From IMG/VR virus record IMGVR_UViG_3300035202_000312, positions 1-26,635 of that record: a stretch of DNA of 26,635 nt; one strand, 5' to 3'. The notes beneath the pieces were generated by a model. The model was not told where the DNA came from. It saw nothing but the letters and a program-made list of their open reading frames with translations, and made no database searches. Source of the DNA: a virus. The position numbers and the translations under genes are program-made. Below, one piece after another: positions 11 to 25,066 of this stretch; positions within the stretch are counted from its first letter, which is position 1; each line of letters opens with the position of its first letter.

Positions 11-73
11 ATGTCAAAAGTTAAATCAAATGGTGTAAAAAGTGTTATTGAGGATAAGAGTCCCGAAGTCTGA
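11..73 (+). CDS. Possible 3' end of upstream gene or 20-residue ORF
   Basis: An ATG at 11 opens a 20-codon frame ending in TGA at 71-73. The same frame stays open to the left edge of the window, so this may be the tail of a longer upstream gene and not a separate peptide. No Shine-Dalgarno site is visible before the ATG. The frame overlaps the next ORF by about 30 bases. The product is lysine- and serine-rich and matches nothing I recognise. Coding status is uncertain. Confidence 0.3.
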   Translation: MSKVKSNGVKSVIEDKSPEV

Positions 74-251
74 GCATAAAGTCGAAGTTGAAACTGAAAA
101 GGATGGATTTTTAGTGCTGAATGGCAAAAAATACCCTATTGACGGTGAGGTGTCTGAACTTATAGTCGATATGCTTGAAGAATTAATCGATTTAAGAGAT
201 GTGGTCAATATTTATGAAAACGAGTTCTCGGGATACAGAGGAGAAGCATAA
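42..251 (+). CDS. Small acidic hypothetical protein (69 aa)
   Basis: A GTG-initiated ORF of 69 residues. The only in-frame ATG lies past the middle, so GTG at 42 (or TTG at 48) is the likely start. The sequence suggests a short beta-rich N-terminal half (around VLNGKKYPID, residues 26-35) followed by an acidic amphipathic helix (residues 37-55). There is no helix-turn-helix, signal peptide or membrane segment. It sits two genes before the large terminase, where a small terminase subunit is often encoded, but nothing in the sequence supports that role. Its TAA shares one base with the ATG of the next small gene, so the two are probably translated together. Function unknown. Confidence 0.55.
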   Translation: MLLRIRVPKSEHKVEVETEKDGFLVLNGKKYPIDGEVSELIVDMLEELIDLRDVVNIYENEFSGYRGEA

Positions 252-376
252 TGGCTGGAAGTTATGGTACGGGAGAGTCTAAATTCTCAGACGGGTCTAC
301 AAGGTTGGTAAACACCCTAGACAAAAAGAAGCGCGCTAAAAGAAAAAAAAGGTCGTCCAATAAAAAGAAAAAATGA
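251..376 (+). CDS. 41-residue basic peptide resembling the capsid N-terminus
   Basis: A short ORF that starts inside the upstream stop (TAATG), has a GAGGAG ribosome site about 7 bases upstream, and ends in an ATGA overlap with the terminase start. Residues 1-20 read MAGSYGTGESKFSDGSTRLV, very close to residues 1-21 of the major capsid protein (MAQTYGTGTPTQFTDGTQRQ followed by V). About 13 of 27 positions are identical with a one-residue gap, plus several Ser/Thr exchanges. Residues 25-41 are a Lys/Arg-rich tail with no acidic residues. I know no named family. The shared N-terminus suggests it binds a partner that also recognises the capsid N-arm (scaffold, portal or capsid), while the basic tail could bind DNA or the acidic scaffold. 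These roles are inference. The good ribosome site and tight coupling on both sides support a real gene. Confidence 0.65.
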   Translation: MAGSYGTGESKFSDGSTRLVNTLDKKKRAKRKKRSSNKKKK

Positions 377-2004
377 ATTTAGAATACACCATAGAAGAAC
401 GGGAGGTACTATTAAAAAGAATGTATGTGGATATATTTTTTTTCGCGAAGTTTATCTTAGGCGATGAGGAACAGCCGATGAATTATCACATAAGGAAACC
501 CAGCCCGCCGTTTCATAGGGAGATTGTTAATACGCTATTATCCTTAAAGAGAGGAAAGAAACTGGCAGTTGTTGCCCCTAGGGGACACGCCAAATCAACA
601 TTAATCAACTTGGTCTATCCGCTACACCGAATATTATTTGACGAAGAGAAGTTCATACTACTCATATCGGAGTCTGAAAGACAGTCTAAGTTTTTTTTGG
701 AGACATTAGGGAATGAAATCGAACACAATGAAAAACTCATGTATTTTTTTGGAGACAGAAAAGGGAAAACTTGGGGAAAAGAAGAAAAAGACTTTATCAC
801 AGGTTTTGATGAGAAGGGCAACCCGAACAGCTGGTGCAAAGTATTGGTTCGTGGAACGGGGCAGAAAGTTAGGGGCCTTAAATATGGTGCTTACAGACCA
901 ACCCTTACAATAATTGATGACGGGGAAGGCGAGCGTAATACAGCAACTGAAACTTTAAGAGACCAATTCCGTTCATGGCTTAATGGTGCGGTGATTGCAG
1001 GTTCTGCTGATGCAAGGTTGATATTTATAGGAACCATTGTAGATGAAGAGAGTTATTTGAATAGAATTGCTGGCCCACTATCATATAATAAGGATAGGAC
1101 TAGAAAAATTAAAGGATGGGATTCTCTTTTTTATCAGGCTATTCTTCAGGATACTAAGGTTGGAGAATTTGTTGCTAGTGGTAAAGAAATAAGTCTTAAA
1201 AAGGGGAAAAAAGTTTTATGGCCTGAGTATAGAAGCTATAAATGGCTGACGGCAGAGAGGGATAGGCTTATTTCAGAGGGCGACGTAGCTTATTTTTATC
1301 AGGAATATCAGAATATACCGATGGACGATAGTTTTAGGGTCTTCAAAAAAGGAGATATACAGTATTGGCAAGGTATATATGCCTACAATCAGAATCATTC
1401 ATTTATTATTAGGGAAAAAGATGGCGAGAAAGAGGAAGTCCCTGTTAATGTGTTTTTTGGGGTTGACCCTGCGTCAAGTGAAAATGTCAAGGCTGACTAT
1501 ACTGTAATTATGGTTGTTGGAGTAGATAAAGAAAATAATATATATGTCATTGATTATTTTAGAGGGCAGGTAACCCCCATGACATGTGCAGATAAGTTGT
1601 TTGAGATGATGGAGTTTTATAATCCTAGGGAAGTTAAAATAGAAGAGACTGGGCATATTATGTTAAGCGAGTATGTAATCCTAAAGTCTAAAAAGCTTGG
1701 TCACTTTTATAATATTAACCCAAAGAAAGCTATTAAGTCTAAATATTATAGGATTAAGCAGATGCAACCTTACTTTGCTTCTAAGGCAATGTTTTTGAAA
1801 GAAGACCAATGGGAACTTGAGAGCGAATTGTTGAACTTTAAGGAACACGGTACATTTAAAAAGGATACACTTGACGCATTGAGATGGTCGCTTGATGATG
1901 TGTTTGTACCGCGAGTTCAGTATGATGACGAGGGGAATATAACGCAATATAAATCAAAATTGTCTGGAATGGACTGGGAAACAGGAATGTTAATTTATGC
2001 GTAG
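373..2004 (+). CDS. terL: Terminase large subunit (packaging ATPase-nuclease)
   Basis: Motor protein that translocates phage DNA into the prohead through the portal and cuts it at the ends of packaging. At 543 residues it has normal family length and both domains. The N-terminal ATPase has a Walker A-type loop APRGHAKST (residues 68-76), a Walker B strand LTIIDD (178-183) with acidic residues just after it, and a coupling-type segment LIFIGT (216-221). The C-terminal RNase H-like nuclease shows FGVDPASS (D365), VKIEETG (E424/E425) and KKDTLDALRW (D498, D501), the usual acidic metal-binding set. The pattern fits the Terminase_6/Terminase_6C families. The start overlaps the preceding stop as ATGA and lacks its own clear ribosome site, implying coupling to the 41-residue peptide gene. 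No separate small terminase subunit is recognisable nearby. Confidence 0.97.
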   Translation: MNLEYTIEEREVLLKRMYVDIFFFAKFILGDEEQPMNYHIRKPSPPFHREIVNTLLSLKRGKKLAVVAPRGHAKSTLINLVYPLHRILFDEEKFILLISESERQSKFFLETLGNEIEHNEKLMYFFGDRKGKTWGKEEKDFITGFDEKGNPNSWCKVLVRGTGQKVRGLKYGAYRPTLTIIDDGEGERNTATETLRDQFRSWLNGAVIAGSADARLIFIGTIVDEESYLNRIAGPLSYNKDRTRKIKGWDSLFYQAILQDTKVGEFVASGKEISLKKGKKVLWPEYRSYKWLTAERDRLISEGDVAYFYQEYQNIPMDDSFRVFKKGDIQYWQGIYAYNQNHSFIIREKDGEKEEVPVNVFFGVDPASSENVKADYTVIMVVGVDKENNIYVIDYFRGQVTPMTCADKLFEMMEFYNPREVKIEETGHIMLSEYVILKSKKLGHFYNINPKKAIKSKYYRIKQMQPYFASKAMFLKEDQWELESELLNFKEHGTFKKDTLDALRWSLDDVFVPRVQYDDEGNITQYKSKLSGMDWETGMLIYA

Positions 2005-2043: not shown

Positions 2044-4056
2044 ATGATAAGAATTAAGAAATTAGACCTCGAAGAGCTAAAAGCTAGTGATGTACGAGAC
2101 GAATATACTAATTATTCGTCGTCTGCTGCTGATTACAAATATCAAATGGCTGAGGATGATGAATTTTTTCTCGGTATGCAACTTACAAGTGGTCAAAAGG
2201 ACTATCTATTAAGTATTGGGCAACCGCCCGAGGCAAATAATAAGATTAGACCGGCAGTTGAGCAGGTTTTAGCTAATGTTGCTAGCTCTTCTCCAGAGTG
2301 GGACGTGATAGCGACTGGGCAGACGGATAATGATATAGCCAATATTTATAACGCCCTTCTAGATAAGATATGGTTTGATTCTCACGGGAATAGACATTTT
2401 CGGAACATTTGCAGGGACTACATCGTAAAAGGTGTTGGGTATATGTATGTGTACCCGGATTGGCAGGCCGAACAGGGGGCTGGGGGAATTCGGATTAAAA
2501 GAGTTGCTCCCGAATCTGTATTTGTTGACCCCAATTCTACTGACTCACACTTTTCAGACGCAGGGAGTATTATGCTTTCTGATTTGCATACCAAAGAGTC
2601 TCTGAAAATCAACTTCCCCCAATATGCTGATATTATTGAAGATGCAAGAGAGGACTCTGAAACAAATTTCCAAAATACTGGCAAATATAACCGAGATACA
2701 AAAAGTTTAAGGGCTGATATTAGTCCATTTGACGGAAAGCCGTCTGTAAGAAAATTCGTCAGGTGGTCTAAAGTTGGTGTGCCAAAGGTTATGGTTACTG
2801 ATAATATGACTGGGTTATATAAGATTTTTGATAAAGACGATTATAAAACGGCACAAAAAGAAGATAGATATAACGAATACTTAAATGGTGGGCAGATTTC
2901 TGAAGAGTTGGTTTATGAAACCCAAATAAGGGAAACATTTGTTATTGGCGACCATTTAGTATATGACGAAGTGTTGCCGATGGATAGATACCCAATTATT
3001 CCTGCATGCAACGAACATAATGGTACTCCTTATCCCGCTGGAGACGTAAGACACGCAAAAACTCCGCAGAGAATGCTTAATAGGGTTGAAGCTCTTTTAA
3101 TCAGCCACGCAACTAGCACTGCAAGTTTTAAGTTGCTTTATGAAGATGGAGCAATAGATAATGAAGAAATAGAGAAGTGGTATGTGCCTAATGCAATTAT
3201 TCGTGCTAATCCCGGCGCATTGAGAGAACAAAAGATAAAAGAATTTGCTCCACCCGCTATTAGCGCACAGCTTTATAGTGAAAAGCAAAGATATGAGGTG
3301 GATATTGAAACAATTTTTGGAGCTTATAAATTTCAACAGGGTAATCCGCAAGGAGCCGTAGGAACTGTTGGTGAAGCTCAAATCATAGACGAAGCCGCGG
3401 CTCGTAAACAGAATTGGAAAATACTCCCAATTTATGATATGCTTACAGAAGCAGGAAGATGCGCGGCATTATATACGCCTTATGTTTATAATAAGGCAAG
3501 AGTATTAAGAATTTTAAATCCCCTAGGGACTGAAAAGGAAGTTACAATCAACACTCCCGGTATTAATGACTATACCCAAGCCGTTGAGATGCTATATGAT
3601 GTAACATCTGCCCATGTAGATGTTCGTGTAGTCGTCGGAAGCACTAGAGCTAAAACTCCTAGCGCAGATTTGGCTAGAGATATAGGACTTATGCAGGTTG
3701 GTATTTATGATAAGGTTCAAGTTATCATGAATATGCAGTCTAATGTTGATAAAGCGGCACTAATTAAGCGTATGGGTGAGATTTCTCAATTATCTGGTCA
3801 AGTACAACAGTTACAGGAGCAGGTAGAGACCCTTTCTGGAGACCTACAGACAAGGGAAAGGGAACTGTTTCATACCCGAATGCGGGCTGAAATTGCAGAG
3901 GCTACAAAACCTGTACAGAAGGCTGTAAGCAATCTGCAATCAACCGCAAAGGCGGAACAGGAAAAACAAAGAGAGCTTACTCGGCAAACAGCCGAAGATT
4001 TAAGCTACTTATCAAAACAGGCTATAAACTCGGAAACCGAAGCCCCATCAGCTTAG
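2044..4056 (+). CDS. Portal protein, P22-like
   Basis: Forms the dodecameric ring at one capsid vertex through which DNA enters and leaves, and the docking site for terminase and connector. The 670 residues start with a segment like those of P22-type portals: DDEFFLGMQL (38-47), then NNKIRPAVEQ (65-74) and SSPEWDVIATGQTD (82-95). A C-terminal region from about residue 571 to 660 is strongly heptad-like and rich in Gln, Glu and Lys, a probable coiled coil or barrel extension into the capsid. It lies between terminase and scaffold, as expected. No Shine-Dalgarno site is seen before ATG 2044, and the 39-base gap from terL is AT-rich. There is no alternative in-frame start upstream before a stop at 2026. 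Confidence 0.92.
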   Translation: MIRIKKLDLEELKASDVRDEYTNYSSSAADYKYQMAEDDEFFLGMQLTSGQKDYLLSIGQPPEANNKIRPAVEQVLANVASSSPEWDVIATGQTDNDIANIYNALLDKIWFDSHGNRHFRNICRDYIVKGVGYMYVYPDWQAEQGAGGIRIKRVAPESVFVDPNSTDSHFSDAGSIMLSDLHTKESLKINFPQYADIIEDAREDSETNFQNTGKYNRDTKSLRADISPFDGKPSVRKFVRWSKVGVPKVMVTDNMTGLYKIFDKDDYKTAQKEDRYNEYLNGGQISEELVYETQIRETFVIGDHLVYDEVLPMDRYPIIPACNEHNGTPYPAGDVRHAKTPQRMLNRVEALLISHATSTASFKLLYEDGAIDNEEIEKWYVPNAIIRANPGALREQKIKEFAPPAISAQLYSEKQRYEVDIETIFGAYKFQQGNPQGAVGTVGEAQIIDEAAARKQNWKILPIYDMLTEAGRCAALYTPYVYNKARVLRILNPLGTEKEVTINTPGINDYTQAVEMLYDVTSAHVDVRVVVGSTRAKTPSADLARDIGLMQVGIYDKVQVIMNMQSNVDKAALIKRMGEISQLSGQVQQLQEQVETLSGDLQTRERELFHTRMRAEIAEATKPVQKAVSNLQSTAKAEQEKQRELTRQTAEDLSYLSKQAINSETEAPSA

Positions 4057-4086: not shown

Positions 4087-5004
4087 ATGAGTGATGAAAA
4101 AAAGGTACAGAAGACAGAAGAATCAGGTTCTGATAACCAGAATGATGTAATGGAGGCATTGGAAGATTTCAATAATCCCGTTAAAGAGTCTGGCTCAGAT
4201 GAGGTGGAAACTAAAGGTGCTGAACCCGAGGTTAAATCTCAGCCTGAAGAATCGTCTGAAGTCAAAGATAATCCAAAAAGAACCGATGAATCACCAGTTG
4301 ATTGGCTCATTGATAATAAATTTCGTAATGATGAAGATGGTAGGCAAAGCCTCGCCGATTCCTATAAAAACATGCAAAGCATGAAGGATAAGGCGGAGCA
4401 GGAGCTTAAATCTCAGAGTGGAGAATATGATAGATTGAGTAAGCTTGATAAATTTCTGAAGGAAAACCCAAATGTGGTTAATGTAATTCAGGAAGAAGTC
4501 ACTAAAGTTGCTGAATCTAGCGATGCTTCACCGGACAAACCTGAAGATTACGATATTTTAGATGAAGCAGTTAATGGAACCTCGTCTCAAAAATGGAGAA
4601 CTAGTTACGACGAATGGCTTATTGAACAAGGCGCTCGCAAAGCAATGCAGTATGTCGATGATGTTAGACATCAAGACGCTCAGCAAGCAAACCTTCAAGC
4701 CGAAGTTGACCAACTAAAATCTCTTGGAATGACAGATACGGAAATCGAAGGCTATTACGGCTGGATGAATAATCCCGACAATGTCACGACTGAGAATAAG
4801 GTTAAGATTTATAAGATTCTTAATGGGCAGGTCAGTAAAGAAAGCAATGATGCTGATGTGAAAGGTTCCACTGGTCAATCTGTTAAAGAAATGTCCAAAA
4901 ATGTGAGTGCTGGCGCTGTTGAAGGCAAAGCATCTGCAGTAAAGACAAACTTTGAGAAAGAACAAGAGGACTGGGTAGCTAGCATCATGCAATTTTCCAA
5001 GTAG
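4087..5004 (+). CDS. Capsid assembly scaffold protein
   Basis: Probable internal scaffold that guides capsid subunits into a closed prohead and then leaves. The 305-residue product is highly charged and predicted mostly helical. An acidic, disordered Ser/Glu/Asp-rich N-terminal third (residues 1-75) precedes helical segments around residues 95-140, and the chain ends in a short amphipathic helix near FEKEQEDWVASIMQFSK. Charged helical proteins encoded exactly between portal and major capsid gene are typically scaffolds, so the call rests on position and composition and not on a sequence motif. A consensus AGGAG at 4076-4080, six bases before the ATG, fits high expression. No protease domain is visible. 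Confidence 0.8.
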   Translation: MSDEKKVQKTEESGSDNQNDVMEALEDFNNPVKESGSDEVETKGAEPEVKSQPEESSEVKDNPKRTDESPVDWLIDNKFRNDEDGRQSLADSYKNMQSMKDKAEQELKSQSGEYDRLSKLDKFLKENPNVVNVIQEEVTKVAESSDASPDKPEDYDILDEAVNGTSSQKWRTSYDEWLIEQGARKAMQYVDDVRHQDAQQANLQAEVDQLKSLGMTDTEIEGYYGWMNNPDNVTTENKVKIYKILNGQVSKESNDADVKGSTGQSVKEMSKNVSAGAVEGKASAVKTNFEKEQEDWVASIMQFSK

Positions 5005-5026: not shown

Positions 5027-6457
5027 ATGGCACAAACCTATGGTACTGGGACACCAACCCAGTTTACTGATGGTACACAGAGACAAGTTCTCGAACTTGG
5101 GCAGAAGATTCATTACTATAACCCAAGTGTCACTCCTCTACTGACTATATCCGGACGCGCGGGTCACCGCGGGACACCTGTTCCCATCTATGAATGGATG
5201 GAAGACGAATACTATATCAAGCGGTCAACTTTAATTGCCGCAGCTGATATGGTTGCCGAAACAGATATTCTCGACAGTGCATCTGCTGGAATTAATGGAG
5301 ACGGTTGTGTTCTCCGACTGCAACGACAAGCTCTTATGGAGCTTTTTGAAGTTGGCGGAATCTATACCATATCCGGTTCTAGCGGACAAGGTGAATCCAA
5401 TACACATTTCATGTGTCACGCAGTTGGAAAGGATGTAAACCACGGGTCAAAGACTGATAGGGATGTCCAATTTGTAGGTGGTACTTACGCAAGTAAGACA
5501 TTTACACTGAACGATGTTGCTAATGGTGTTGACATGATTACCGCAGGACAGGCTACGACAATTACATTTGTCGGTAGTGTGTCTGGCGCAGGTAGTTCAA
5601 GTGGCAAATATCCTTGGGAAGGTGGAACTGATGGTAATTCATTTACCACCACAGAAACCTTCGCTGTTCGTGGAACAGAAGGTATTGCTGAAGGCGCGGC
5701 TATCGGGAAAGAGACTCGGAAAAAAGTTCGCAGGTTAAAAAACTGCACGCAAATTTTCCGGGAACCTTATGAAATCACTCGTACTGCTAGAGTTTCTAAG
5801 CAGTATGGTGGCCCTGAGCTTGCTCGTTTGCAAGCCCGGAAATTGGCACAAATCAAGGTTAATGTTGAAACGGCATTATTGTTTAATGGCGCAATCAGTT
5901 TAGACGCTACCGCAGCGGCTCCGGCAAGAACTTTTGCTGGATTCGGTGTTGGAGGGTCAGCTGGTATTGTCCAATCAAACAATGGTGACATCAGCACTGC
6001 CTTTCAACTCAACAACTCAACTGGAACTCAAGCTAACTTCGACGATGTTTTGGAAGCAGTATTTCAAGACATGGTTGATGGTTCTATGCACAAAACAGTC
6101 TATGCCTCTAATAAGTGGCTGACTAAAATGGTTAAGATGGTTAGAGCAGACTCATCAGGGCAGTTAAACGCCAAGATGGGTTCTGAAATAACCGCTGGCT
6201 TGAGAGTAATGGAATATATGGGGCCTGTTGGTTCCGTTAGTTTCATTCCTCATCCTCTGTTGAAGGGTGCGTATGAAGATTACGCCCTCGCGGTTGATAT
6301 GGCTAACTTTGAAGTTCGCGCTTTAGCTGAATCTAGTTTTCAGCTCAGACGTGACGTTGTCAAAGATGGCTCGGATGGTCAGGTAGATGAATGGTTAGTA
6401 GAGCTTGGCCCTGAAATTCGTCAGGAACAGACTCACGCTATTTTGAAGCTGGTCTAA
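5027..6457 (+). CDS. Major capsid protein
   Basis: Main shell subunit (476 residues), presumably of HK97-like fold as in all tailed phages. The call rests on its place after portal and scaffold, its size, a strong AGGAG ribosome site at 5014-5018, and the hairpin directly after its stop. The N-terminal arm starts MAQTYGTGTPTQFTDGTQRQ. A Gly/Ser-rich, probably surface-exposed stretch lies around residues 110-215. A basic region containing KKVRRLKN follows at about residue 230, next to a long helix (about 255-285) that could be the spine helix. The last third has an alternating beta pattern. No prohead protease is encoded in the window, so the N-arm is probably not processed. The N-arm sequence recurs in the 41-residue peptide at 251-376. 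Confidence 0.9.
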   Translation: MAQTYGTGTPTQFTDGTQRQVLELGQKIHYYNPSVTPLLTISGRAGHRGTPVPIYEWMEDEYYIKRSTLIAAADMVAETDILDSASAGINGDGCVLRLQRQALMELFEVGGIYTISGSSGQGESNTHFMCHAVGKDVNHGSKTDRDVQFVGGTYASKTFTLNDVANGVDMITAGQATTITFVGSVSGAGSSSGKYPWEGGTDGNSFTTTETFAVRGTEGIAEGAAIGKETRKKVRRLKNCTQIFREPYEITRTARVSKQYGGPELARLQARKLAQIKVNVETALLFNGAISLDATAAAPARTFAGFGVGGSAGIVQSNNGDISTAFQLNNSTGTQANFDDVLEAVFQDMVDGSMHKTVYASNKWLTKMVKMVRADSSGQLNAKMGSEITAGLRVMEYMGPVGSVSFIPHPLLKGAYEDYALAVDMANFEVRALAESSFQLRRDVVKDGSDGQVDEWLVELGPEIRQEQTHAILKLV

Positions 6458-7081: not shown

Positions 7082-7735
7082 ATGAAGTACAGGGCGGCTT
7101 TTGAACTTATAGACGCTGGTCTTATTAAGGCTGAGCTAGGATTTCCACCTTTAGAGGGTGCGAAAAAGGAATTTTTTAATGCTAAAGTGCAGGAGGTAGG
7201 ACTGCGTGCTGACAAAAAGAAAAATTCTGAAAGCTTTACCACAACCGCCACAAACTCTTATACATTTACAAATACAGATGTAACATCAAGGATATACAAG
7301 GTTCAACTGGATACAAAACTTGTTCCTTTTGTCAGCGAAAAACGATATACCGAGAATTTAGATGAGTCACTGGTTGATAATATAGGGTTCTTTTATAAAG
7401 AAACAGTAACTGGGCCAGAAGAATTGGTAAGGTCGATTGCTCGCCAAATAATTTTTACTAAAAATACGGAGGCAGGGAAGACATTAAAGGTGTCTTATTA
7501 TGCTAGTCCGGTAGCTTATACTGATTTGGATAGTTATATTGATTTGCCAGACCAGTTAATACCGTCTGCTCTTCATTATGCGCTTGGGCATTTCTTAGCA
7601 TTAGATGGTCAAATGAAATTAGCGTCTGGTCATCGCGGTTTGGCTCGACAAATTGAGCAGGAGTATATTCAAACAATTAATACAAGGGAAGCAAAACCAG
7701 ACATTATCCCATTGCCATTACAGGATTTCTTATAA
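7082..7735 (+). CDS. Probable head-tail connector/adaptor protein (217 aa)
   Basis: No strong motif, but the C-terminal third is helical (residues about 160-205) and reads like connector or adaptor proteins that stack under the portal: a bundle containing LPDQLIPSALHYALGHFLAL followed by a second helix ending in REAKPDI. The centre (residues 55-145) has beta character. The gene lies between head genes and tail genes, the normal site for adaptor proteins. There is no Shine-Dalgarno site before ATG 7082, which is six bases after the previous stop, so translation is probably coupled. Its own stop overlaps the next start (TAATG). Connector is the most likely role, but a minor tail protein is possible. 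Confidence 0.65.
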   Translation: MKYRAAFELIDAGLIKAELGFPPLEGAKKEFFNAKVQEVGLRADKKKNSESFTTTATNSYTFTNTDVTSRIYKVQLDTKLVPFVSEKRYTENLDESLVDNIGFFYKETVTGPEELVRSIARQIIFTKNTEAGKTLKVSYYASPVAYTDLDSYIDLPDQLIPSALHYALGHFLALDGQMKLASGHRGLARQIEQEYIQTINTREAKPDIIPLPLQDFL

Positions 7736-10056
7736 TGAGTGTTTTTAAAACAGAAATAGAAGATTTAGTCGGAGTTGTAGGCGACGATACTTTTTTAAAC
7801 GATTCTATAGTTTCTACCGCCAAAGAGATTATAAAAGCATTACCACCCACTAAGGTTTTTAGCGTTTCTGAAACAAGCGCAGAAATTACCTCTCAAGCTT
7901 ACGATATTGGTGAAGCTAAGGTGCTAAAAGTGCAAAGAGAGACAGGTTCTGACGGAGTTTATGCTAATTGCACAGAAATATCGGTAGAATATGAAGATAA
8001 GGTACAGGATTCTGGGAGCATGTTTTATCCCAGCGTAACAAACCCTGTTTATTTATTTAAGAATGGGAACGTCTGGGTTTATCCAGCTCCTGAAAATTCT
8101 CCAAATTCTATGAAGGTCACTACAGTATTATATCCAACAACAATAGATTGCACTTCAGCCTCAGTAGGTTCAGGGTTGGCAACTTTCCCAAATGAATATG
8201 AGAATCTTGTTGTTGTAGGGGCGGCTACAAAAGCTTTACAATATTTAATGGCGAGAGTAAAAGATAATTTTAGTGGGATAAACCCTACTTTTGTTGCTCC
8301 AACTATGGGAAGCGTTGGCTCTTTGACGTTACCGAGTGTACCTACTGCTCCATCAATAAGTAGTAATTCTGTTTCATTTAGCACTACTGCGCCCGCGTAC
8401 ACGAAGCCAGTGTTGTCCTTGACAAGTTTTCCTTCAATAACATGGGCTTTACCTAGTGTCCCATCTGTTCCGGTCTTAACGTCTAGCACAGTTAGCTTTA
8501 GCCAAACTGCGCCAACTTATACAAAGCCAGTATTGTCTTTCACAAACTTTCCAACGCTAACGTGGGCATTTCCAAGCGTTCCATCCACTCCAGTTTTAAA
8601 GTCAACTACTGTAAGTTTTAATCAAACTGCGCCAACTTATACAAAGCCAGTATTTTCTGAGCCGGGATTTCCAACAATAAATGGTATGACGTTACCCAGT
8701 GTTCCAAATGCACCAGTAGAACCATCTTTTACAACGCCAAATATTGTTGATGGTACAGTCGGTTCTTTAGGAACAGCTCCCACATATGCAAAACCAGTAC
8801 AATCTTTTGATATTGGTCAATTAGAAACATTTTTAGAAACAAACGAAGACCCTGAATTGGCTCAGGTACAGATTGGTAGATTGTCTCAAGAACTTGGGCA
8901 GTATCAAGCTGATATTCAGAACGAATTAAATGAGTATAATAAAGAAAATGCGATTTATCAAACGACAGTTCAAGAAGCAATTAAAAATGCTGAGATAAAA
9001 GCTCAAGAAAATCAGGGGGAGGCTAATTTAAAGCTATCTAAAGAGCAACAGGAATACGGAGCTAAGCTGTCGAAATTTCAGAATGATATTGGTAATTATC
9101 AAGCGCAGGTTAATAAAGAGGTACAGCGCTGGACAGCAGAAGAATACAATAAGAAATTCCAAGAATGGCAGACTAAATATAATAACAGGCTTCAGGGATA
9201 CTCTTCAGACATACAAAACGCACTAAATTTATTTAATAAAGAGAATGTGGAATATCAGGCTCAATTACAAGTGTCTATTCAAAACGCCCAGCAAGAGGGA
9301 AGTGATGATGCACAAATACTTCAGAAGTACCAGAATCAGGTTTCGTCTTATCAATCTGAAGTTGGTAAAGTTGTGCAGGGTAATCAGGGGCAGGCTAGTG
9401 AATGGCAGACTCAAAATAATTTAAAATTACAGCAATACGGTTCTGATATTCAGAACGAATTAAATGGGTTCAACAAAGAGAACACAGTGTATCAGGCGGA
9501 GCTTCAAGTTTCGATACAGAACGCCCAGTTAAACTCAGAGGACGATAGTCAATTAATACAAAAATATCAAAATGAATTAGGTTCCTATCAAGCTGAAGTG
9601 ACTAAGGTGGTTCAGGGAAATCAAGGGCAAGTATCAGAATGGAATATTCAAAATAAGATAAACCTAGAGCAGTATTCAGTAGATATTCAAAACGAGTTAA
9701 ATGACTTTAATAAAGAGTCGGCTGAATATCAGGCTCAATTACAAATATCTATTCAAAATGCTCAGTTGAGTTCAGAGGGCGATGCTCAGACTTTACAAAA
9801 ATACAATGGTCAAATTGGAGCTTATCAAGCGGAGGTTGCTTCTGCTATTCAAAAATGGACTGCTGAGGAATGGACTCAGAATTTTGAGAAGTATAATTCG
9901 GATTATGCGCGTATTGTTGAAAAATTTAACGCAGATGTGCAAAAGTATGGTGCTGATTTACAAAAATACAATTCTGAGTACCAATGGTATCAAGACCAGT
10001 ATGCTCGATTAAGCGCAGATTATAAAGAACAGTTACAAATTATTATGGCGAACTAA
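7735..10056 (+). CDS. Repeat-rich virion protein: adaptor-like head, Pro repeats, coiled coil
   Basis: A 773-residue protein in three parts. Residues 1-190 form a globular, mixed alpha/beta domain with a segment near residue 115 (VYPAPENSPNSMKVTTVLYP) reminiscent of N-terminal domains of connector-linked proteins in marine podoviruses. Residues 200-330 hold three 40-41 residue Pro/Ser/Thr repeats plus a partial fourth, each with TAPxYTKPV. Residues 388-765 are a long Gln/Asn/Glu-rich heptad region built from repeats of about 79 residues with the signature DIQNxLNxFNKE. The layout suggests an attached globular base, an extended stalk and a coiled-coil rod, perhaps a fiber or a structure around the tail. 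It lies between the connector candidate and the tail hub. Function unknown; the structural assignment is by context. Confidence 0.75.
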   Translation: MSVFKTEIEDLVGVVGDDTFLNDSIVSTAKEIIKALPPTKVFSVSETSAEITSQAYDIGEAKVLKVQRETGSDGVYANCTEISVEYEDKVQDSGSMFYPSVTNPVYLFKNGNVWVYPAPENSPNSMKVTTVLYPTTIDCTSASVGSGLATFPNEYENLVVVGAATKALQYLMARVKDNFSGINPTFVAPTMGSVGSLTLPSVPTAPSISSNSVSFSTTAPAYTKPVLSLTSFPSITWALPSVPSVPVLTSSTVSFSQTAPTYTKPVLSFTNFPTLTWAFPSVPSTPVLKSTTVSFNQTAPTYTKPVFSEPGFPTINGMTLPSVPNAPVEPSFTTPNIVDGTVGSLGTAPTYAKPVQSFDIGQLETFLETNEDPELAQVQIGRLSQELGQYQADIQNELNEYNKENAIYQTTVQEAIKNAEIKAQENQGEANLKLSKEQQEYGAKLSKFQNDIGNYQAQVNKEVQRWTAEEYNKKFQEWQTKYNNRLQGYSSDIQNALNLFNKENVEYQAQLQVSIQNAQQEGSDDAQILQKYQNQVSSYQSEVGKVVQGNQGQASEWQTQNNLKLQQYGSDIQNELNGFNKENTVYQAELQVSIQNAQLNSEDDSQLIQKYQNELGSYQAEVTKVVQGNQGQVSEWNIQNKINLEQYSVDIQNELNDFNKESAEYQAQLQISIQNAQLSSEGDAQTLQKYNGQIGAYQAEVASAIQKWTAEEWTQNFEKYNSDYARIVEKFNADVQKYGADLQKYNSEYQWYQDQYARLSADYKEQLQIIMAN
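8332..8694 (+). repeat. Tandem 40-residue Pro-rich coding repeats
   Basis: Three in-frame units at 8332-8451, 8452-8571 and 8572-8694 (120, 120 and 123 bases), followed by a partial unit from 8695. Each starts PSVP, carries a strand ending in SF, then TTAP or QTAP, then YTKPV, and ends near TWA or an equivalent. The codons of the units differ at many synonymous positions, so the amino-acid pattern is older than any recent duplication. Confidence 0.85.
8896..9903 (+). repeat. Coiled-coil coding repeats of about 237 bases
   Basis: Four consecutive units: a longer degenerate one at 8896-9192 (99 residues), then three of exactly 79 residues at 9193-9429, 9430-9666 and 9667-9903. Shared features are DIQNxLN, FNKEN or FNKES, YQAQLQ or YQAELQ, SIQNAQ, a central SYQ or AYQ heptad, and VVQGNQGQ in the middle units. 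The first and last units instead carry W(T)AEE(Y/W) at the equivalent place. A 240-base Gln/Lys/Tyr-rich tail follows to 10053. Confidence 0.85.
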
Positions 10057-19100: not shown

Positions 19101-21696
19101 TGTAACAGGTAAAGAAATCCCAATGCACCAAGCTGCTAATAGATATGCAGATTATGCTAGGGCTACAATATATCAATATCCATCTATATATCATCGCGTT
19201 ATGAAGGGATTTGATTTATATAAAGAAGCTTTAAAGGAAAGATTTGATGAAGGTCTAATAGGTGAAGCGGATTATAATAATCTAAGCCAAAGGCTGTATA
19301 ACCCTAAACAGTATCTTGAAAAATTGCGAGATTCTAATACTATAGGGGTTGGCCCCGCGAGGTCAATAACTGTTCCTAAAACAGATGTAAAGAAAATGGG
19401 GACAGGTAGTTCAGGTCATTTGTTTAATGATTGGGAAGCTATGTATCATCAGTCTTTAAGTTCTAAAAATAATATTATACATAAGAACAGAGCCAATAAT
19501 GCTTTGTATGATTTAGCAGAAACTATGGGAGCTGAAATTGGAGATATTATATACATACCTGAAGGCGGAGCTAAATTGCCTGACGGGTATAAATCCGTAG
19601 AACTTATGCGAAAGGATTTAGAGGGTAATGTCTCTAAAAAACGAGTAGCTATGAGAGAGGAGTTTCTGGACTCTTGGGTATCTAAGGGTGAGAATGCTAT
19701 AAAGTCTAGCACGGCAAATGCTCTAGGATGGGCTACCTTAACTAAACCTCTAAAAGCTTCTGCTACTGGATATAACTGGGGCTTTGCTTTATATCAGATG
19801 CCACTAGATGCTGGTTACAATATAATGCACGGTAGGGCATTTAGCTCCTTTGTTCCCCTTGCTGTTCCGCAACTTTTAAGAGATTATATAGCTACTGCGC
19901 CTGATGTTATGACAAGAAATTGGAAACACGGTAAGTATGGAAAGCGTAACTTTGGCGCTAACCCAGCAAACGAGGTTAGAAAATATTATTTAGAAGGCGG
20001 AAGGATGGATTATTTCACTGCTATGGGTCAATTCGGAAGGACGAGAACGGGCGGTCTTAAAAAAGGGCAAAGTCCTTTTATGGGATGGATTAATGATTGG
20101 GCTGGAGCGCTAGGTAGCACCACAGAATTGTGGACTCGGATGGCAATAAGAAACAGATATATGAGACCTAAGAGTAAAATTGGGACTTTAGGCGGAGCTA
20201 ATATGTCGTCTATTGATGCTAGTTTGGGTGCTAGGAATACTTTAGACTTTTTAGCTGGCGGCGGAATAGCAAAGGCTATGGATAGTGGTTTGCCATATTT
20301 CAATGCAGGTATACAGGCATCAAGGGGGATGTTTCGTTCTCTTGGCTTTGGGGCAGAAAGAGGTACGAGTCCTTACTTCTCCAGCAGGGGAAAGACATTA
20401 GCTAAATATGCTCAAGTAATGGGAATCGCTGGCGCTATGGCTTGGTATAATAGGACGCAGGAACCTGAAAACTATTTTAAACTTAGCGATACTGAAAGAT
20501 ATAATAATTGGGTAATCCCAATTAGTGATATGGTTATTCACGATAAAGAATCTGGTCGGGACATACCTATGTATTTAAGGTTTGCTAAAGACCAAGGGCA
20601 AAGAGCTGTTGCTGGTTTGATAGATGTTGGGATGGCTATTGCTATGAAAGATGAAAAAAGTCTTGATGTTATCAGTAAATATTTAGATAGAACTCTTGAA
20701 AATGTTAGTCCAATCACCGTAAGCATGTTACCGCCTGCGCTTAAAATAATAGCTGGATGGAAGTCAAATAAGGACATTTTCTATAATGCAGAAATATGGA
20801 AGGGTGATTATACTGTTGAAAATCCATATCGGGTAAACCCTGAAACTGGTGAGTTTGCACAGGATGTGGCAGGTGTTTGGAACTCATTCGCCAATGGGGA
20901 ATCTTATACGCTTGACCCAACTCAATTAGATTTTGCCTTTAAACAGCTCGGAAGTCAGTCTCAACCTGTTTTTGAGTTGTTTGGTACATTACATAAAAAT
21001 ATTAAAGAAATGGCTGGAATGGAATTGAAAGACATGAGACATCCGGTAACTGTATCTGATGTCCCCGGTTTTAATAATGTGGTTAGAAGAATAGTAAGGG
21101 AAGTCCCTATTGACAGAGTAGATAATAGAATGAGGCCTATAACTAAAGAATTAATTAGCAAAACTGAAACTCATAAAGAAATCAACAATCAAATGCAAGA
21201 TAGGTTCTTTTTTGTGATGCAAGAAGCTCAGAAAAAAGGGAATGTTGAGAAGGCTGATTCAACATATAAAAAATATGAAGAATGGCTACAAAAGCAGGGG
21301 GATAGTATGGGTCTTGCTGAGTATGAAAGATTGGAGAAAAATGGTAATCAAAAACAGTTATGGAAGCAAGCTGGAGATTTGAGGGGAATCCCTCAAATAG
21401 CTTCTTACTTTTTAAAGAACTATCGCACAAAAGGCCCTCGAGAAAAAGCTATGGCATTATATGGCGAATTTGCTAATCCTTATTTTGTAGCAAACCCAGA
21501 AGCCTATTCCCCTTTTATAGAAGCAATCGAAGAATATAGTGGGTTTATGTCAGAAGAAACACAGGGCATGTTAAACCTCTTTATTAATAATGATGAGGCC
21601 GACCTAAGAAAAATCTATGGTAACGACTTGTATGAAAGATTTATTAATTTACATGATAAAAAATTGAGAGAAAGTAAGAATAAGCTTGCCAAATAA
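16117..21696 (+). CDS. Giant internal virion protein with M15-type peptidase and LPD38-like region
   Basis: An 1859-residue polyvalent protein, probably packaged and ejected to open the way for DNA. A Pro-rich N-terminus repeats HPNLPPPP twice (11-18, 34-41). Residues about 95-190 carry a VanY/M15-type zinc peptidase signature: SLHNFSAATD (H126, D133; SxHxx[GS]xAxD pattern), then WGWGGDAKH (D178, H181; DxxH). This suggests peptidoglycan cutting. Residues about 1195-1560 match large polyvalent protein region 38 in style (ASATGYNWGFALYQMPLDAG, TELWTRMAIRNR, PYFNAGIQASR). The remaining sequence is mostly helical and charged. The start is preceded by GAGGT at 16105-16109. T7 gp16-like function is an analogy, not homology. 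Membrane-active parts cannot be placed with confidence. Confidence 0.8.
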   Translation: MPHQQQVKKTHPNLPPPPNIQEEEIYKQNALRSHPNLPPPPPLQTVEPVQPVASPLSAEAPPITFDEDKFATNMEEIANATVNNLKKFYKTDDVEVRIAHQGGRRDLKEQAELANRGASDTTISLHNFSAATDFDIFINGEWMRGEGKDNSLAQSPDPFRVLGSEALKRGYFWGWGGDAKHVGETRFVSDFIEKYPDYAFKDNTKAVYEKYSETAPAGYKPLLEKLDELYGKSEVKREYTGKERTIDPLLDAIYVDAVSESQEKSEVDIALADETKRVKDSPNAPIDDYDNITKPRSEVVISNVNYDRMADAPPPVTDGELYDLAVQNTSYQNIIENILNPAPYMYAGDGAIAEEIDSQPGAKMTTPFIMRLTDEMKAYYNRENYDPSAQDVLTVSNNIIHNIPELAVGMAEFHADLFNDVTQAWGATADKMVLDVGSPRDDWGEVGQDVMDAIDFFNVSFTDVVKALVTPAVLPFYKLAGMSDESVERIKQASTEARGRFLHSPLNPIAAAYGMKGGLKGLSKGETKGGPKLRAFIKEQAENGRVALEYYRNPAKFDQMPNPSVVEITNTLKVMEPAQISNFEKGLVQLEFDLTKVPPLEEVSKARAKKAMDKAEAERQQTLGLKDVAEVTRKKTIPKEQKEAFGEDVPSDAVVYVEPPPNPKFDPLFNHLIVQKPIVTPFAETPLLEQPKPRYVSQNSREAVVIKNDYGNLLENLKELDRKIDGLKKGGEPKLDRVVSLEKVPKAIMDSMYNDRLVNLKKARDNVQKNIELKLKEMEKLGIDPLNYMNMAFGLPPGSGVARWLLERIKKGLPIPEGKLREMLSGSKRTPESYKGDNPYYNSNVQKMQDIYNKQDGSMDAKAIQKLRTFKEKMMEGFPDANYRIRKGLFDEFGNIPEVREALNYMDRLRGSSGITLTQLEQGKYQVTRGLKNNEKRIFNRLSQAINEVEIWNNHQTRIAELVKKLDKTSGKDRVPIQNEIRRLNKYRLSNSFDPVTGKEIPMHQAANRYADYARATIYQYPSIYHRVMKGFDLYKEALKERFDEGLIGEADYNNLSQRLYNPKQYLEKLRDSNTIGVGPARSITVPKTDVKKMGTGSSGHLFNDWEAMYHQSLSSKNNIIHKNRANNALYDLAETMGAEIGDIIYIPEGGAKLPDGYKSVELMRKDLEGNVSKKRVAMREEFLDSWVSKGENAIKSSTANALGWATLTKPLKASATGYNWGFALYQMPLDAGYNIMHGRAFSSFVPLAVPQLLRDYIATAPDVMTRNWKHGKYGKRNFGANPANEVRKYYLEGGRMDYFTAMGQFGRTRTGGLKKGQSPFMGWINDWAGALGSTTELWTRMAIRNRYMRPKSKIGTLGGANMSSIDASLGARNTLDFLAGGGIAKAMDSGLPYFNAGIQASRGMFRSLGFGAERGTSPYFSSRGKTLAKYAQVMGIAGAMAWYNRTQEPENYFKLSDTERYNNWVIPISDMVIHDKESGRDIPMYLRFAKDQGQRAVAGLIDVGMAIAMKDEKSLDVISKYLDRTLENVSPITVSMLPPALKIIAGWKSNKDIFYNAEIWKGDYTVENPYRVNPETGEFAQDVAGVWNSFANGESYTLDPTQLDFAFKQLGSQSQPVFELFGTLHKNIKEMAGMELKDMRHPVTVSDVPGFNNVVRRIVREVPIDRVDNRMRPITKELISKTETHKEINNQMQDRFFFVMQEAQKKGNVEKADSTYKKYEEWLQKQGDSMGLAEYERLEKNGNQKQLWKQAGDLRGIPQIASYFLKNYRTKGPREKAMALYGEFANPYFVANPEAYSPFIEAIEEYSGFMSEETQGMLNLFINNDEADLRKIYGNDLYERFINLHDKKLRESKNKLAK

Positions 21697-24600
21697 TAAA
21701 TATACCAATTCTACCTTAAACCAAACTCCTGTTACTGGGCCTTTTGGGTTTCCATTAAAGAACTCCGATGGTTCTAACAATGAAATCCGTGTAGTTAGGA
21801 AGGGTGGAAGATATTCTCTTGCTATAAAATCTGGAAATATATGGCATTATATTAACGAGAATGGGGAAGCGACCTCTACAACTCTTGGATTGGTCAAAGT
21901 TGGTGATGGTCTCGCAATAACCTCGGGTGGCACATTATCTGCAACAGGTGCAGGAGCCAACAATTATCTTGATGGGATTACAAGAGCAACGAATACACTT
22001 ACCTTTAGTGTAAATGGTGCTACAGATGTTCCTTACACCTTTGGTAGCAACGCTTTTACTTCTACGACTATCCTTGCATTAGGGACTACTGCCGGGACTG
22101 CTCTTGAAGGAGACACAGGGGTAACTAATTGGAGTGGTGGTAGTGGTGGTTTAACTGCATCTACAGGCAGAACAAGTTTAGGACTTGGTAGTATGGCTCA
22201 AGAAAACACAAGTAGTTATGCTACTGGGGCGCATCTTGCTATAGGAACATCTTCAACCACTGCATTACGTGGAGATGCCTCTACCGCGAATTTAGAAGAT
22301 ATAACGGGCGCAGGTGATGACAGTGGACAAATATTGATTTATGCTCTAGATGATGATGGATACAATCCACTTGTAATGAGTGGAGATGCAACTATGGATA
22401 AGGATGGTATAGTTACAGTCGCTAACGACTCCCACACTCATTCAGCTTATTCGCCCACATCTCATACCCATAGTGGGTATGCTACATCAAGTCATACACA
22501 TAGCACTTCTAATCTAACAGATATAACAGGTGCGGGTGATACGAGTGGGCAAATATTGATTTATGCTGAAGACGATACGGGTTATAACCCACTTGTAATG
22601 AGTGGAGACATAACAATGGATAAGGATGGTATAGTTACAGTAGCCAATGACTCTCATACCCATTCATCTTATATTACTTCTGCTTATTCTGACTTATCCA
22701 CCAATTCTAAAATCGGTACTGGCTCAACCCAAGTTGCTCAAGGCAACCACACGCATAGTATATATATGTCCTCTACTGCTAATTTCGGGGACTTAGCGGA
22801 TGTAGAAACAGGAATATTGGCATCTTCTGGAGAGGTGATTACGGGGGACTCTGGAGAATTTGTCTCTAAAACTTTAGCTAATGCTGGGATTGAAGCATCT
22901 TTTACAAAAAATACTGCCTTTAACAAGAATTTTGGTACATCTTCTACCACCGTTGCGTATGGGAATCATACTCATAGTGTCTATATGTCCTCTACCGCAA
23001 ACTTTGATGACCTTAACGATGTAGCTACAGGGACTTCCCCGAGTAGCGGAGAACTCATAACGGGTGATTCGGGAGAGTATATAAGTGAAACCTTCGCCAA
23101 TGCTGGCGTTTCTGAGGTGGGTCACACGCATGGAACAGGAGACATCTCTAATTTATCTGGCACAAATACTGGTGATGTATGCACTACAAATCATACAAGT
23201 GCTGGTTATTTGGATAATACCGCAAACTTTGGAGACTTAGCCGATGTAGAAACGGGTATTAGTGCTTCCTCTGGTGAAGTTATAACAGGTGATTCTGGTG
23301 AATTTGTATCAAAGACATTGGCTAATGCTGGGATTGAAGCATCTTTTACGAAGAACACCGCTTTTAATAAAGACTTTGGCACTTCTTCCACTACCGTTGC
23401 TTACGGAAACCATACGCATAGCACCTATATGTCTTCTACTGCCAACTTTGGAGATTTAGCGGATGTAGAAACAGGGATTAGTGCAAGTAGCGGTGAAGTA
23501 ATAACAGGAGACTCTGGAGAGTTCGTTTCAAAGACTTTAGCTAATGCGGGAATAGAGCCATCCTTTACGAAGAACACCGCTTTTAATAAAGACTTTGGTA
23601 CTTCTTCTACTACGGTTGCATATGGGAACCATACACATAGTACCTATATGTCATCTACTGCCAGTTCGTCCGATTTAAGTGATGTGGATGGTAGTGCATC
23701 GGGTGAAGATATATTATTTTATGATGAGAGTACATGGAAACCGTCTTCTTTAGCAGAAGCGGGAATATCGGCAACATCTCATACACATAGTGGGTATGCC
23801 GCATCAAGTCATTCACATAGTGGGTATTTATCAACATCTGCCAACTTTGGAGATTTAGCTGATGTTGAAACTGGTATCTCTGCATCCTCTGGAGAGGTAA
23901 TCACAGGAGATTCGGGAGAGTTTGTTTCTAAAACATTGGCAAATGCTGGTATAGAGCCATCCTTCACAAAGAATACTGCTTTTAACAAAAATTTTGGTAC
24001 ATCTGGTAGTACAGTTGCATACGGAAACCATACGCATAGCGGGTATTTATCATCTTCTGTTGCATTTGGCGATTTAACCGATGTTGAGACTGGGATTACT
24101 GCATCTTCTGGGGAAGTTATTACTGGCGATTCTGGGGAATTTGTTTCTAAAACATTAGCTGATGCGGGTATATCTGCTACATCCCATACCCATAGCTATC
24201 TCCCAACAACATTAAGTAGCGGTTATACAGTAGGTATGGGTAGTTGGGGGTTGAGAAATACGACCCCTAGTGGCTATATTGAGTTTGGCCCAGCAAATTC
24301 CTCTTGGGCGCATATATATGAAAGCGGTACAGCGAATGGTTTTTATATGAACTCAAATCTTCATGTTGCAGATGGATATCAAGTTCTTCATGCGGGCAAC
24401 TACTCCTCTTACGCTCTCCCATTAAGTGGTGGGACTGTTACTGGTGATACCACTTATAATGATATATACTGTAAAAATATTGATGTAAATAGAGGTGCAG
24501 ATATTGGTAGCACAACAGTTGGGGTTTTAACGCTCTACAGTACGGGTCATTCCACGACTTCAAAAATTTGCTTTAAACATCAGAGTAGTGTTGGGTGGGG

Positions 24601-25066
24601 AAATCACGGATATTGCGATGACAATTACAATACATATTTTGAAATGGATTCTACTGGTCGTGGATGGGTATTCAGAAATGCAACAACTTCTACTAATGTA
24701 TTTTCAATATCCAATCGCGGTGAAATATATGCAAATGGAAGTTCAACATTTGCAAGTACAGTCACTTGGTCTGGTGGTGGCTCAGCAAATGCAAATACGG
24801 CTTATACACATAGCCAATCTTCCCATGCTCCAAGTAACGCAAATTATATAACCAACAATAACCAATTAACCAATGGGGCGGGATATTTAACATCAATCGG
24901 TTCCCACGACCATTCTTTTGGTGGAGTAAATCTATCCGATGTAGAGAGTGGTGAATCAAGCATGGATATATTGGTCTACGATTCTGGGAAGTGGACACCT
25001 TCGACTTTGGCAGAAGCGGGATGTTCTGCAACATCCCACGGACACAATAGATATATGAAAAGTTGA
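21686..25066 (+). CDS. Tail fiber, main part (1126 aa), ends at in-frame TGA
   Basis: Starts with TTG inside the end of the previous gene (11-base overlap); no in-frame ATG exists in the first 60 codons, so TTG is the likely start. The N-terminal 200 residues are Gly/Thr/Ser/Asn-rich. They are followed by modules of about 60-75 residues that end in H-x-H signatures, mostly HTHS (15 H-x-H copies by my count), which in T4 gp37-type fibers coordinate iron in a needle. From about residue 840 a beta-rich module with LSSGYTVGMGSWGLRNTTPS begins. The frame stops at TGA 25064-25066 just after HGHNRYMKS, yet the same frame continues open for 365 more codons to an S74 chaperone. A bona fide S74 fiber therefore appears split. 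As written, this product lacks the trimerisation chaperone. Confidence 0.85.
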   Translation: MPNNKYTNSTLNQTPVTGPFGFPLKNSDGSNNEIRVVRKGGRYSLAIKSGNIWHYINENGEATSTTLGLVKVGDGLAITSGGTLSATGAGANNYLDGITRATNTLTFSVNGATDVPYTFGSNAFTSTTILALGTTAGTALEGDTGVTNWSGGSGGLTASTGRTSLGLGSMAQENTSSYATGAHLAIGTSSTTALRGDASTANLEDITGAGDDSGQILIYALDDDGYNPLVMSGDATMDKDGIVTVANDSHTHSAYSPTSHTHSGYATSSHTHSTSNLTDITGAGDTSGQILIYAEDDTGYNPLVMSGDITMDKDGIVTVANDSHTHSSYITSAYSDLSTNSKIGTGSTQVAQGNHTHSIYMSSTANFGDLADVETGILASSGEVITGDSGEFVSKTLANAGIEASFTKNTAFNKNFGTSSTTVAYGNHTHSVYMSSTANFDDLNDVATGTSPSSGELITGDSGEYISETFANAGVSEVGHTHGTGDISNLSGTNTGDVCTTNHTSAGYLDNTANFGDLADVETGISASSGEVITGDSGEFVSKTLANAGIEASFTKNTAFNKDFGTSSTTVAYGNHTHSTYMSSTANFGDLADVETGISASSGEVITGDSGEFVSKTLANAGIEPSFTKNTAFNKDFGTSSTTVAYGNHTHSTYMSSTASSSDLSDVDGSASGEDILFYDESTWKPSSLAEAGISATSHTHSGYAASSHSHSGYLSTSANFGDLADVETGISASSGEVITGDSGEFVSKTLANAGIEPSFTKNTAFNKNFGTSGSTVAYGNHTHSGYLSSSVAFGDLTDVETGITASSGEVITGDSGEFVSKTLADAGISATSHTHSYLPTTLSSGYTVGMGSWGLRNTTPSGYIEFGPANSSWAHIYESGTANGFYMNSNLHVADGYQVLHAGNYSSYALPLSGGTVTGDTTYNDIYCKNIDVNRGADIGSTTVGVLTLYSTGHSTTSKICFKHQSSVGWGNHGYCDDNYNTYFEMDSTGRGWVFRNATTSTNVFSISNRGEIYANGSSTFASTVTWSGGGSANANTAYTHSQSSHAPSNANYITNNNQLTNGAGYLTSIGSHDHSFGGVNLSDVESGESSMDILVYDSGKWTPSTLAEAGCSATSHGHNRYMKS
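22292..22670 (+). repeat. Two DITGAG-type fiber modules
   Basis: Units starting at 22292 and 22514 (222 bases apart, 74 codons) share DITGAGDxSGQILIYA, then GYNPLVMSGD, and end in VTVANDSHTHS. They differ mainly in the short acidic linker and at synonymous sites. They precede the main repeat block. Confidence 0.8.
22775..24199 (+). repeat. Tandem NFGDLADVETG/H-x-H fiber modules
   Basis: Seven in-frame units start at 22775, 22994, 23219, 23438, 23657, 23837 and 24059, mostly 219-225 bases long. The core of each is NFGDLADVETG, SSGEVITGDSGEFVSKTLA, then an NAFNK or equivalent segment, then YGNHTHS. The units at 23219 and 23438 are nearly identical in protein. Units at 22994 and 23657 are divergent and carry a different C-terminal half. 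The high identity invites recombinational gain or loss of units. Confidence 0.9.
24209..24420 (+). repeat. Direct repeat, copy 1 (fiber TVGMGSWG module)
   Basis: 212 bases encoding TLSSGYTVGMGSWGLRNTTP through GYQVLHAGNYSSYALP. The second copy begins exactly 1116 bases downstream (372 codons), in the same reading frame and beyond the in-frame TGA. The encoded sequences are nearly identical apart from a few residues and synonymous changes. Confidence 0.9.
25064..25066 (+). other. In-frame TGA interrupting the tail fiber reading frame
   Basis: Codon 1127 of the fiber is TGA, with context AAA AGT TGA GCA GAT. The frame then stays open without another stop to TAA at 26159-26161. A change of one base from TGG (Trp) would give this stop. 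UGA is used as an ordinary stop by other genes here (the 505-residue gene at 16104-16106 and the 41-residue peptide gene at 374-376), so genome-wide recoding is not supported. Confidence 0.9.

What the first reader, a model, noticed from the sequence alone, without database searches (positions are those of the whole stretch)
251..376. A 41-residue peptide beside the terminase copies the N-arm of the major capsid protein
Seen: residues 1-26 of the peptide and 1-27 of the capsid protein align with one gap at about 13 identities (M, A, Y, G, T, G, F, D, G, R, V, L, K) plus Ser/Thr exchanges. Of the 13 identical residues, nine use different synonymous codons (for example GCT/GCA, ACG/ACT, TTC/TTT, GAC/GAT), so this is not a fresh DNA duplication and the protein pattern seems to have been held by selection. 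The rest of the peptide is a Lys/Arg-rich tail. Inference: the peptide may occupy the binding site of the capsid N-arm on scaffold, portal or capsid, with the basic tail touching DNA or the acidic scaffold. It could act as a packaging or assembly regulator, mark the portal vertex, or stand in for a missing small terminase. I know of no described system of this kind.
Basis: partly seen in the sequence, partly recalled or inferred. Interest (0 to 1): 0.75.

Follow-up and report, generated by a model that had tools for sequence, protein, structure and literature searches.

The report
Mini-gene copying the capsid arm
A family of uncultured, apparently marine phages carries a conserved 36-53-residue gene whose front half copies the first ~22 residues of their own shell protein and whose back half is a strongly positive tail, most likely a DNA-binding peptide that uses the shell protein's own 'address tag' to get into the virus head.

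Summary
ORF 251-376 aligns with the major capsid protein (MCP) N-arm at exactly 13 identities, 9 with different codons; score 53 against a shuffle mean of 17.4 (0 of 20,000 reach it); profile-profile E 8e-10. The peptide is a conserved gene family: 57 distinct members beside this SU10-type MCP module. It occupies one of two places: just upstream of terL (the window's clade) or just downstream of the MCP gene (most other relatives). In 51 distinct contigs with both places visible, 28 are MCP-downstream, 17 terL-upstream, 0 both, 6 neither. After the peptides themselves, the next 39 distinct hits of a peptide HMM are all MCPs. Conserved residues use many synonymous codons, so selection acts on the protein. 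Peptide and MCP arm do not clearly covary genome by genome. The small-terminase idea is not supported. Best reading: an old duplicate of the MCP N-arm, kept as a head-targeting tag, carrying a basic tail into the prohead; it would work like T4 internal proteins with their capsid-targeting sequence, without being homologous. The mechanism is inferred; the gene, its two positions and the similarity are shown.

The parts
251..376 (+). 41-aa peptide gene (arm-like front half plus basic tail)
   Evidence: Coupled start and stop; conserved family of 57 distinct sequences; protein-level constraint
251..319 (+). residues 1-23, the MCP-arm-like half (YGTG...F[ST]DG..R....L)
320..373 (+). residues 24-41, Lys/Arg-rich tail (family net charge of whole peptide +7 to +17)
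5027..6457 (+). major capsid protein, SU10_MCP family (HK97 fold)
   Evidence: Pfam PF17236 E 3e-37; phrog_1328; fold search to VP1, SU10 capsids
5027..5101 (+). MCP N-arm, residues 1-25, the stretch that is copied
   Evidence: Near-invariant in 52 distinct MCPs
4087..5004 (+). putative scaffold, acidic (net -27), possible partner of the MCP arm
   Evidence: Position before the MCP gene, charge; no informative family hit
373..2004 (+). terminase large subunit, downstream neighbour of the peptide gene
   Evidence: phrog_38 E 1.5e-73
42..251 (+). 69-aa conserved ORF, upstream neighbour, function unknown
   Evidence: Conserved upstream of terL in most relatives; no family hit

Best explanation
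The peptide is a short head protein made of two parts: a head-targeting tag that reproduces the first ~22 residues of the MCP (probably an old duplication of the MCP gene's 5' end) and a polybasic DNA-binding tail. SHOWN: it is a conserved gene, found only beside the head genes of this one phage family; its front half matches the MCP arm; its tail is always strongly positive. INFERRED: the tag binds whatever the MCP arm binds inside the prohead (most likely the acidic scaffold, or the arm-binding groove of a neighbouring MCP), so the peptides are co-assembled on the inner surface; when the scaffold leaves and DNA enters, the basic tails neutralise and hold the DNA against the shell.
For: Similarity to the MCP arm far beyond chance and to nothing else in the loci. 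Conserved single copy at one of two places in the head module, 45 of 51 contigs. Protein-level constraint. Mean net charge +13, almost all in the tail; putative scaffold net -27. In several genomes lacking it, the place after the MCP gene holds other short Lys/Arg-rich proteins, as if a basic head protein is what matters. Precedents: the P22 MCP N-arm (D14, E15, E18) holds the scaffold (PMC9965877); T4 internal proteins share only a capsid-targeting sequence and their lysines contact DNA (PMC3012670).
Against: No proof that the peptide is translated, packaged or bound to anything. No clear covariation with the MCP arm. One sub-clade lost YGTG. Six of 51 genomes lack it, and three of these (L029, L034, L035) show no evident substitute. 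AlphaFold2 could not place arm or peptide.
Confidence: 0.5

Rival explanations
1. Assembly regulator: the peptide competes with MCP arms for the scaffold or for the neighbouring-subunit groove, filling sites that no MCP arm fills (for example around the portal vertex, where penton arms are missing) or timing scaffold release; the basic tail senses incoming DNA or binds the acidic scaffold.
For: Same arm similarity; acidic putative scaffold; N-arm to scaffold contact in P22 (PMC9965877).
Against: The strong polybasic tail and its replacement by other basic proteins in sister genomes fit DNA binding better; loss in six genomes with unchanged MCP arms.
Confidence: 0.25
2. Cement or minor capsid peptide: the arm-like half binds the mature shell like an extra N-arm and stabilises it, the basic tail lying on DNA only incidentally; no targeting through scaffold.
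For: In P22 the N-arm becomes a loop reaching into the neighbouring subunit on maturation (PMC9965877).
Against: Nothing specific; not separable from the best explanation without structures.
Confidence: 0.12
3. Decoy: a free mimic of the MCP N-terminus that distracts a host defence sensor which recognises the MCP.
For: It mimics a conserved MCP segment; MCP-sensing defences exist (my own knowledge, not checked here).
Against: Fixed place in the head module, polybasic tail, and conservation across a whole family rather than rapid turnover.
Confidence: 0.05
4. Stand-in for a missing small terminase subunit (one of the first reader's options).
For: In the window's clade it lies directly before terL.
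Against: A conserved larger gene occupies the terS place upstream; in most relatives the peptide lies after the MCP gene.
Confidence: 0.02
5. Chance similarity of a short, partly low-complexity or non-coding ORF.
For: The peptide is short and half of it is low-complexity.
Against: 0 of 20,000 shuffles; 57 homologues; fixed residues written in all synonymous codons, for example Gly by GGT/GGC/GGG/GGA 25/13/8/7.
Confidence: 0.01

Closest known systems
Phage T4 internal proteins (IPI-III) with the N-terminal capsid-targeting sequence (PMC3012670)
   Same: Small head-gene products with a conserved N-terminal stretch thought to direct them into the prohead core, and lysines on packaged DNA
   Different: T4's targeting sequence is not described there as a copy of the MCP arm; internal proteins are larger, folded and processed; no sequence relation was tested or found here
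P22 coat protein N-arm and scaffold C-terminus (PMC9965877)
   Same: Shows that an MCP N-arm can be the scaffold's docking site, through acidic residues including D14
   Different: P22 has no described free arm-like peptide (to my knowledge); the arm there is a helix in the procapsid; sequence not compared
Encapsulin cargo-loading peptides (PMC7355545)
   Same: Short terminal tags that load cargo into an HK97-fold shell
   Different: Usually C-terminal, on enzymes, not described there as copied from the shell protein; no DNA
Small Lys/Arg-rich phage proteins next to the MCP gene (DUF6321 PF19846, phrog_7595, phrog_17747, phrog_33179)
   Same: Occupy the same head-module places in sister phages and are strongly basic
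   Different: No arm-like front half; the five tested for arm likeness gave at most a weak hint; function unknown
SU10, VP1 and VS-ABTNL-3 capsids (SU10_MCP family)
   Same: Same MCP family or fold
   Different: VS-ABTNL-3 has a different MCP N-terminus and no such peptide among its annotated neighbours; no INPHARED record matched a family peptide by tblastn

Membership tests
SU10_MCP (PF17236), for the capsid protein whose arm is copied | Match to the curated profile above its cut-off | tested here: met
   E 3.1e-37, 129 bits against cut-off 24.1
T4-type internal head proteins | Packaged inside the virion head with DNA | not testable with these tools
   No proteomics available
T4-type internal head proteins | N-terminal capsid-targeting sequence removed by the prohead protease | not tested
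   Cleavage cannot be seen from sequence here; no protease gene was looked for outside the window
Encapsulin cargo-loading peptides | Short tag sufficient to load cargo into an HK97-fold shell | not testable with these tools
   Needs a fusion experiment; AlphaFold2 of the MCP-peptide read-through gave no placement
Terminase small subunit | Match to a TerS family, or sole candidate in the TerS position | tested here: not met
   No hit in Pfam, PHROGs or NCBIfam; a larger conserved gene lies upstream
Any described small phage protein family | Match to a Pfam, PHROG or NCBIfam model | tested here: not met
   Peptides of both genomic positions: no hit in Pfam, PHROGs or NCBIfam
Paralogue of the MCP N-terminus | Collinear similarity from the start Met over the arm, beyond chance | tested here: met
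   hhalign 96.5%, 21 columns from Met 1; MCPs are the next hits after the peptides. Common descent rather than convergence is an inference

The most novel reading that the evidence does not exclude
A tailed-phage lineage turned the tip of its major capsid protein into a stand-alone basic mini-protein that occupies capsid-arm binding sites (on scaffold, on shell subunits, or at the portal vertex where penton arms are missing) and so controls assembly or anchors the packaged genome: self-mimicry of a shell protein as a working part of the head.
Probability: 0.45. Interest if true: 0.8.

Novelty: new variant of a known kind. Interest (0 to 1): 0.68.

Why it matters
If the tag works as inferred, it marks the functional element of the MCP arm in SU10-type capsids and names a minimal ~20-residue address for loading basic cargo into phage heads, testable by a simple fusion. 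It also shows a phage re-using a piece of its shell protein as a separate gene that stays single-copy while sitting at two different places in the head operon. The family is absent from PHROGs, Pfam and NCBIfam, probably because it is so short, so similar mini-genes may be overlooked elsewhere.

Tried and rejected
Chance or non-coding ORF: rejected. Recent DNA duplication: rejected, because 403 of 596 shared residues use different codons, no fewer than expected for independent codon choice. TerS substitute: not supported; I first took the upstream gene for terS, but no family model confirms it, so that stays an inference. Covariation of peptide and MCP arm: own arm fits no better than others; a partial Mantel correlation is weak overall (0.27) and absent in the window's clade (-0.03), and its permutations do not respect relatedness. 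AlphaFold2: MCP alone with 16 rows (mean pLDDT 56) and an MCP-linker-peptide read-through of L048 with 53 rows (62) both leave the arm and the peptide unplaced, so no conclusion on docking; the fold search used only the poor first model. Likeness of the replacement basic proteins to the MCP arm: none, except a weak hint for MPYGKGTYG... (40 of 5000 shuffles, five proteins tried). In the MCP tree two truncated MCPs (L292, L305) were misplaced by my trimming and are ignored; the direction of the relocation could not be rooted. INPHARED tblastn with a family peptide: no match. Literature searches found no description of such a peptide; most papers of subscription journals are not in that library. 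No promoter or terminator signal above shuffles near the gene.

Full report
WHAT IS THERE. The window is a stretch of an uncultured phage: the end of a putative terS, a 69-aa ORF (42-251), the 41-aa ORF (251-376), terL (373-2004, phrog_38), portal (2044-4056, phrog_156), a putative acidic scaffold (4087-5004), MCP (5027-6457, Pfam SU10_MCP, E 3e-37), then further virion and tail genes. The ORF starts inside the preceding stop codon (TAATG) and ends inside terL's start (ATGA), the layout of translationally coupled genes.

STATISTICS. The peptide scores 53 against MCP residues 1-30; 20,000 shuffles of its first half gave mean 17.4, sd 3.8, maximum 43. The peptide-family profile against the MCP-arm profile gives hhalign probability 96.5% and E 8e-10 for one comparison. 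An HMM of the peptides' front halves run over 16,715 six-frame ORFs from 149 loci finds the peptides, then 39 distinct MCPs in a row before anything else (E 2.8); reversed ORFs start at 3.8.

A GENE FAMILY. 80 MCP relatives and 80 terL relatives were fetched from IMG/VR, with further scans and two loci from a Marinimicrobia bin. The first set holds 57 distinct peptides. In the window's clade the gene lies directly upstream of terL or up to 170 bases before it, in several genomes with a ~60-aa ORF between. In most other relatives it lies downstream of the MCP gene, usually 45-75 bases after its stop and in some 160-735 bases after it. After removing duplicates, 51 contigs show both places: 28 have it after the MCP gene, 17 before terL, none in both, six in neither. 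In an MCP tree the before-terL genomes group together and the after-MCP genomes group with the peptide-less ones, ignoring two truncated sequences. One relocation and a few losses (or late gains) would explain this; the root is not known. A profile scan of IMG/VR for the peptide gave 65 loci; the newly found contigs that I checked all belong to the same module or are fragments too short to tell.

SELECTION. At fixed positions many or all synonymous codons are in use: the Gly of DG by GGT/GGC/GGG/GGA 25/13/8/7 times, the Arg by five codons, the Thr of YGTG by four. Shared residues of peptide and MCP use different codons in 403 of 596 cases, against 353 expected for independent choice. The likeness is therefore held at protein level and is old. 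pN/pS over the 19-codon core is 0.3-0.6 in pairwise comparisons, that is, some positions fixed and others free.

WHAT IS COPIED AND WHAT IS NOT. The MCP arm is nearly fixed (Y5 G6 G8 Q12 F13 Q18 R19 Q20 L22 E23 L24 G25 invariant, D15 above 90%). The peptides keep YGTG, F[ST]DG, R, and often V and L, then turn into a tail that makes the whole peptide +7 to +17 (mean +13). Peptides of the after-MCP genomes resemble the arm more (mean score 46.6) than those before terL (30.8); a sub-clade of the latter reads STN[QE] for YGTG while its MCP keeps YG[AS]G. A peptide does not fit its own MCP arm better than other arms.

CONTEXT AND MECHANISM. In several genomes where the peptide was not found, the place after the MCP gene holds other short Lys/Arg-rich proteins (L059, L288, L295, L302, L303, L304, L009), some in PHROGs of unknown function (phrog_7595, phrog_17747, phrog_33179); L052 has a DUF6321 protein before terL as well as the arm peptide after its MCP gene. 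L029, L034 and L035 show no evident substitute. In P22 the MCP N-arm carries the acidic residues that hold the scaffold (PMC9965877), and in T4 the internal proteins share only a capsid-targeting sequence, with lysines on the DNA (PMC3012670). From these I infer an address tag copied from the MCP arm plus a DNA-binding tail. Binding partner, packaging and effect are not shown. Structure prediction could not place arm or peptide.

VERDICT. I rate it a new variant of a known kind (head-targeted basic protein), because the functional idea has precedents, while a tag made from the shell protein's own arm, carried by a separate single-copy gene at either of two head-module sites, is not described in anything I found (the paper library is partial).

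Noticed in passing
window 42-251: 69-aa ORF conserved between the putative terS and terL in nearly all relatives, whether or not the peptide is there; no Pfam, PHROG or NCBIfam hit.
   Followed up: partly
L007, L014, L017, L018, L022 upstream of terL (e.g. L007 at -209 to 0 relative to terL): A ~60-70-aa ORF (..EIKKMISDRLDxGQxKYNQDVPxxDxRDFTQEALEELLDxCVYL..) sits between peptide and terL in many genomes of the window's clade but not in the window itself.
   Followed up: no
L295, L303, L304, L302, L009, L059, L288, L299 downstream of the MCP gene: Runs of one to several very basic short proteins (30-110 aa, about 25-60% Lys+Arg), some matching phrog_7595, phrog_17747, phrog_33179: a hot spot for small basic head-module genes.
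   Followed up: partly
window 21686-25066 and 25163-26161: Two consecutive tail-fibre-like ORFs share a nearly identical stretch (SGYTVGMGSWGLRNTTPSGYIEFGPANSSWAHIYESG); the first is full of internal repeats (GDLADVETGISASSGEVITGDSGEFVSKTLANAGIE), the second matches tail-fibre PHROGs. It may be a duplicated or split fibre gene.
   Followed up: no
window 7735-10056: 773-aa ORF with Pro-rich repeats (APTYTKPVLSFTNFPTLTWAFPSVPS type) followed by long repetitive Gln/Glu/Lys-rich segments; no PHROG hit.
   Followed up: no
L307, L308: The only genome contigs matches to this MCP lie in one Marinimicrobia metagenome bin (UBA7303), a weak host hint since viral contigs can be mis-binned.
   Followed up: no
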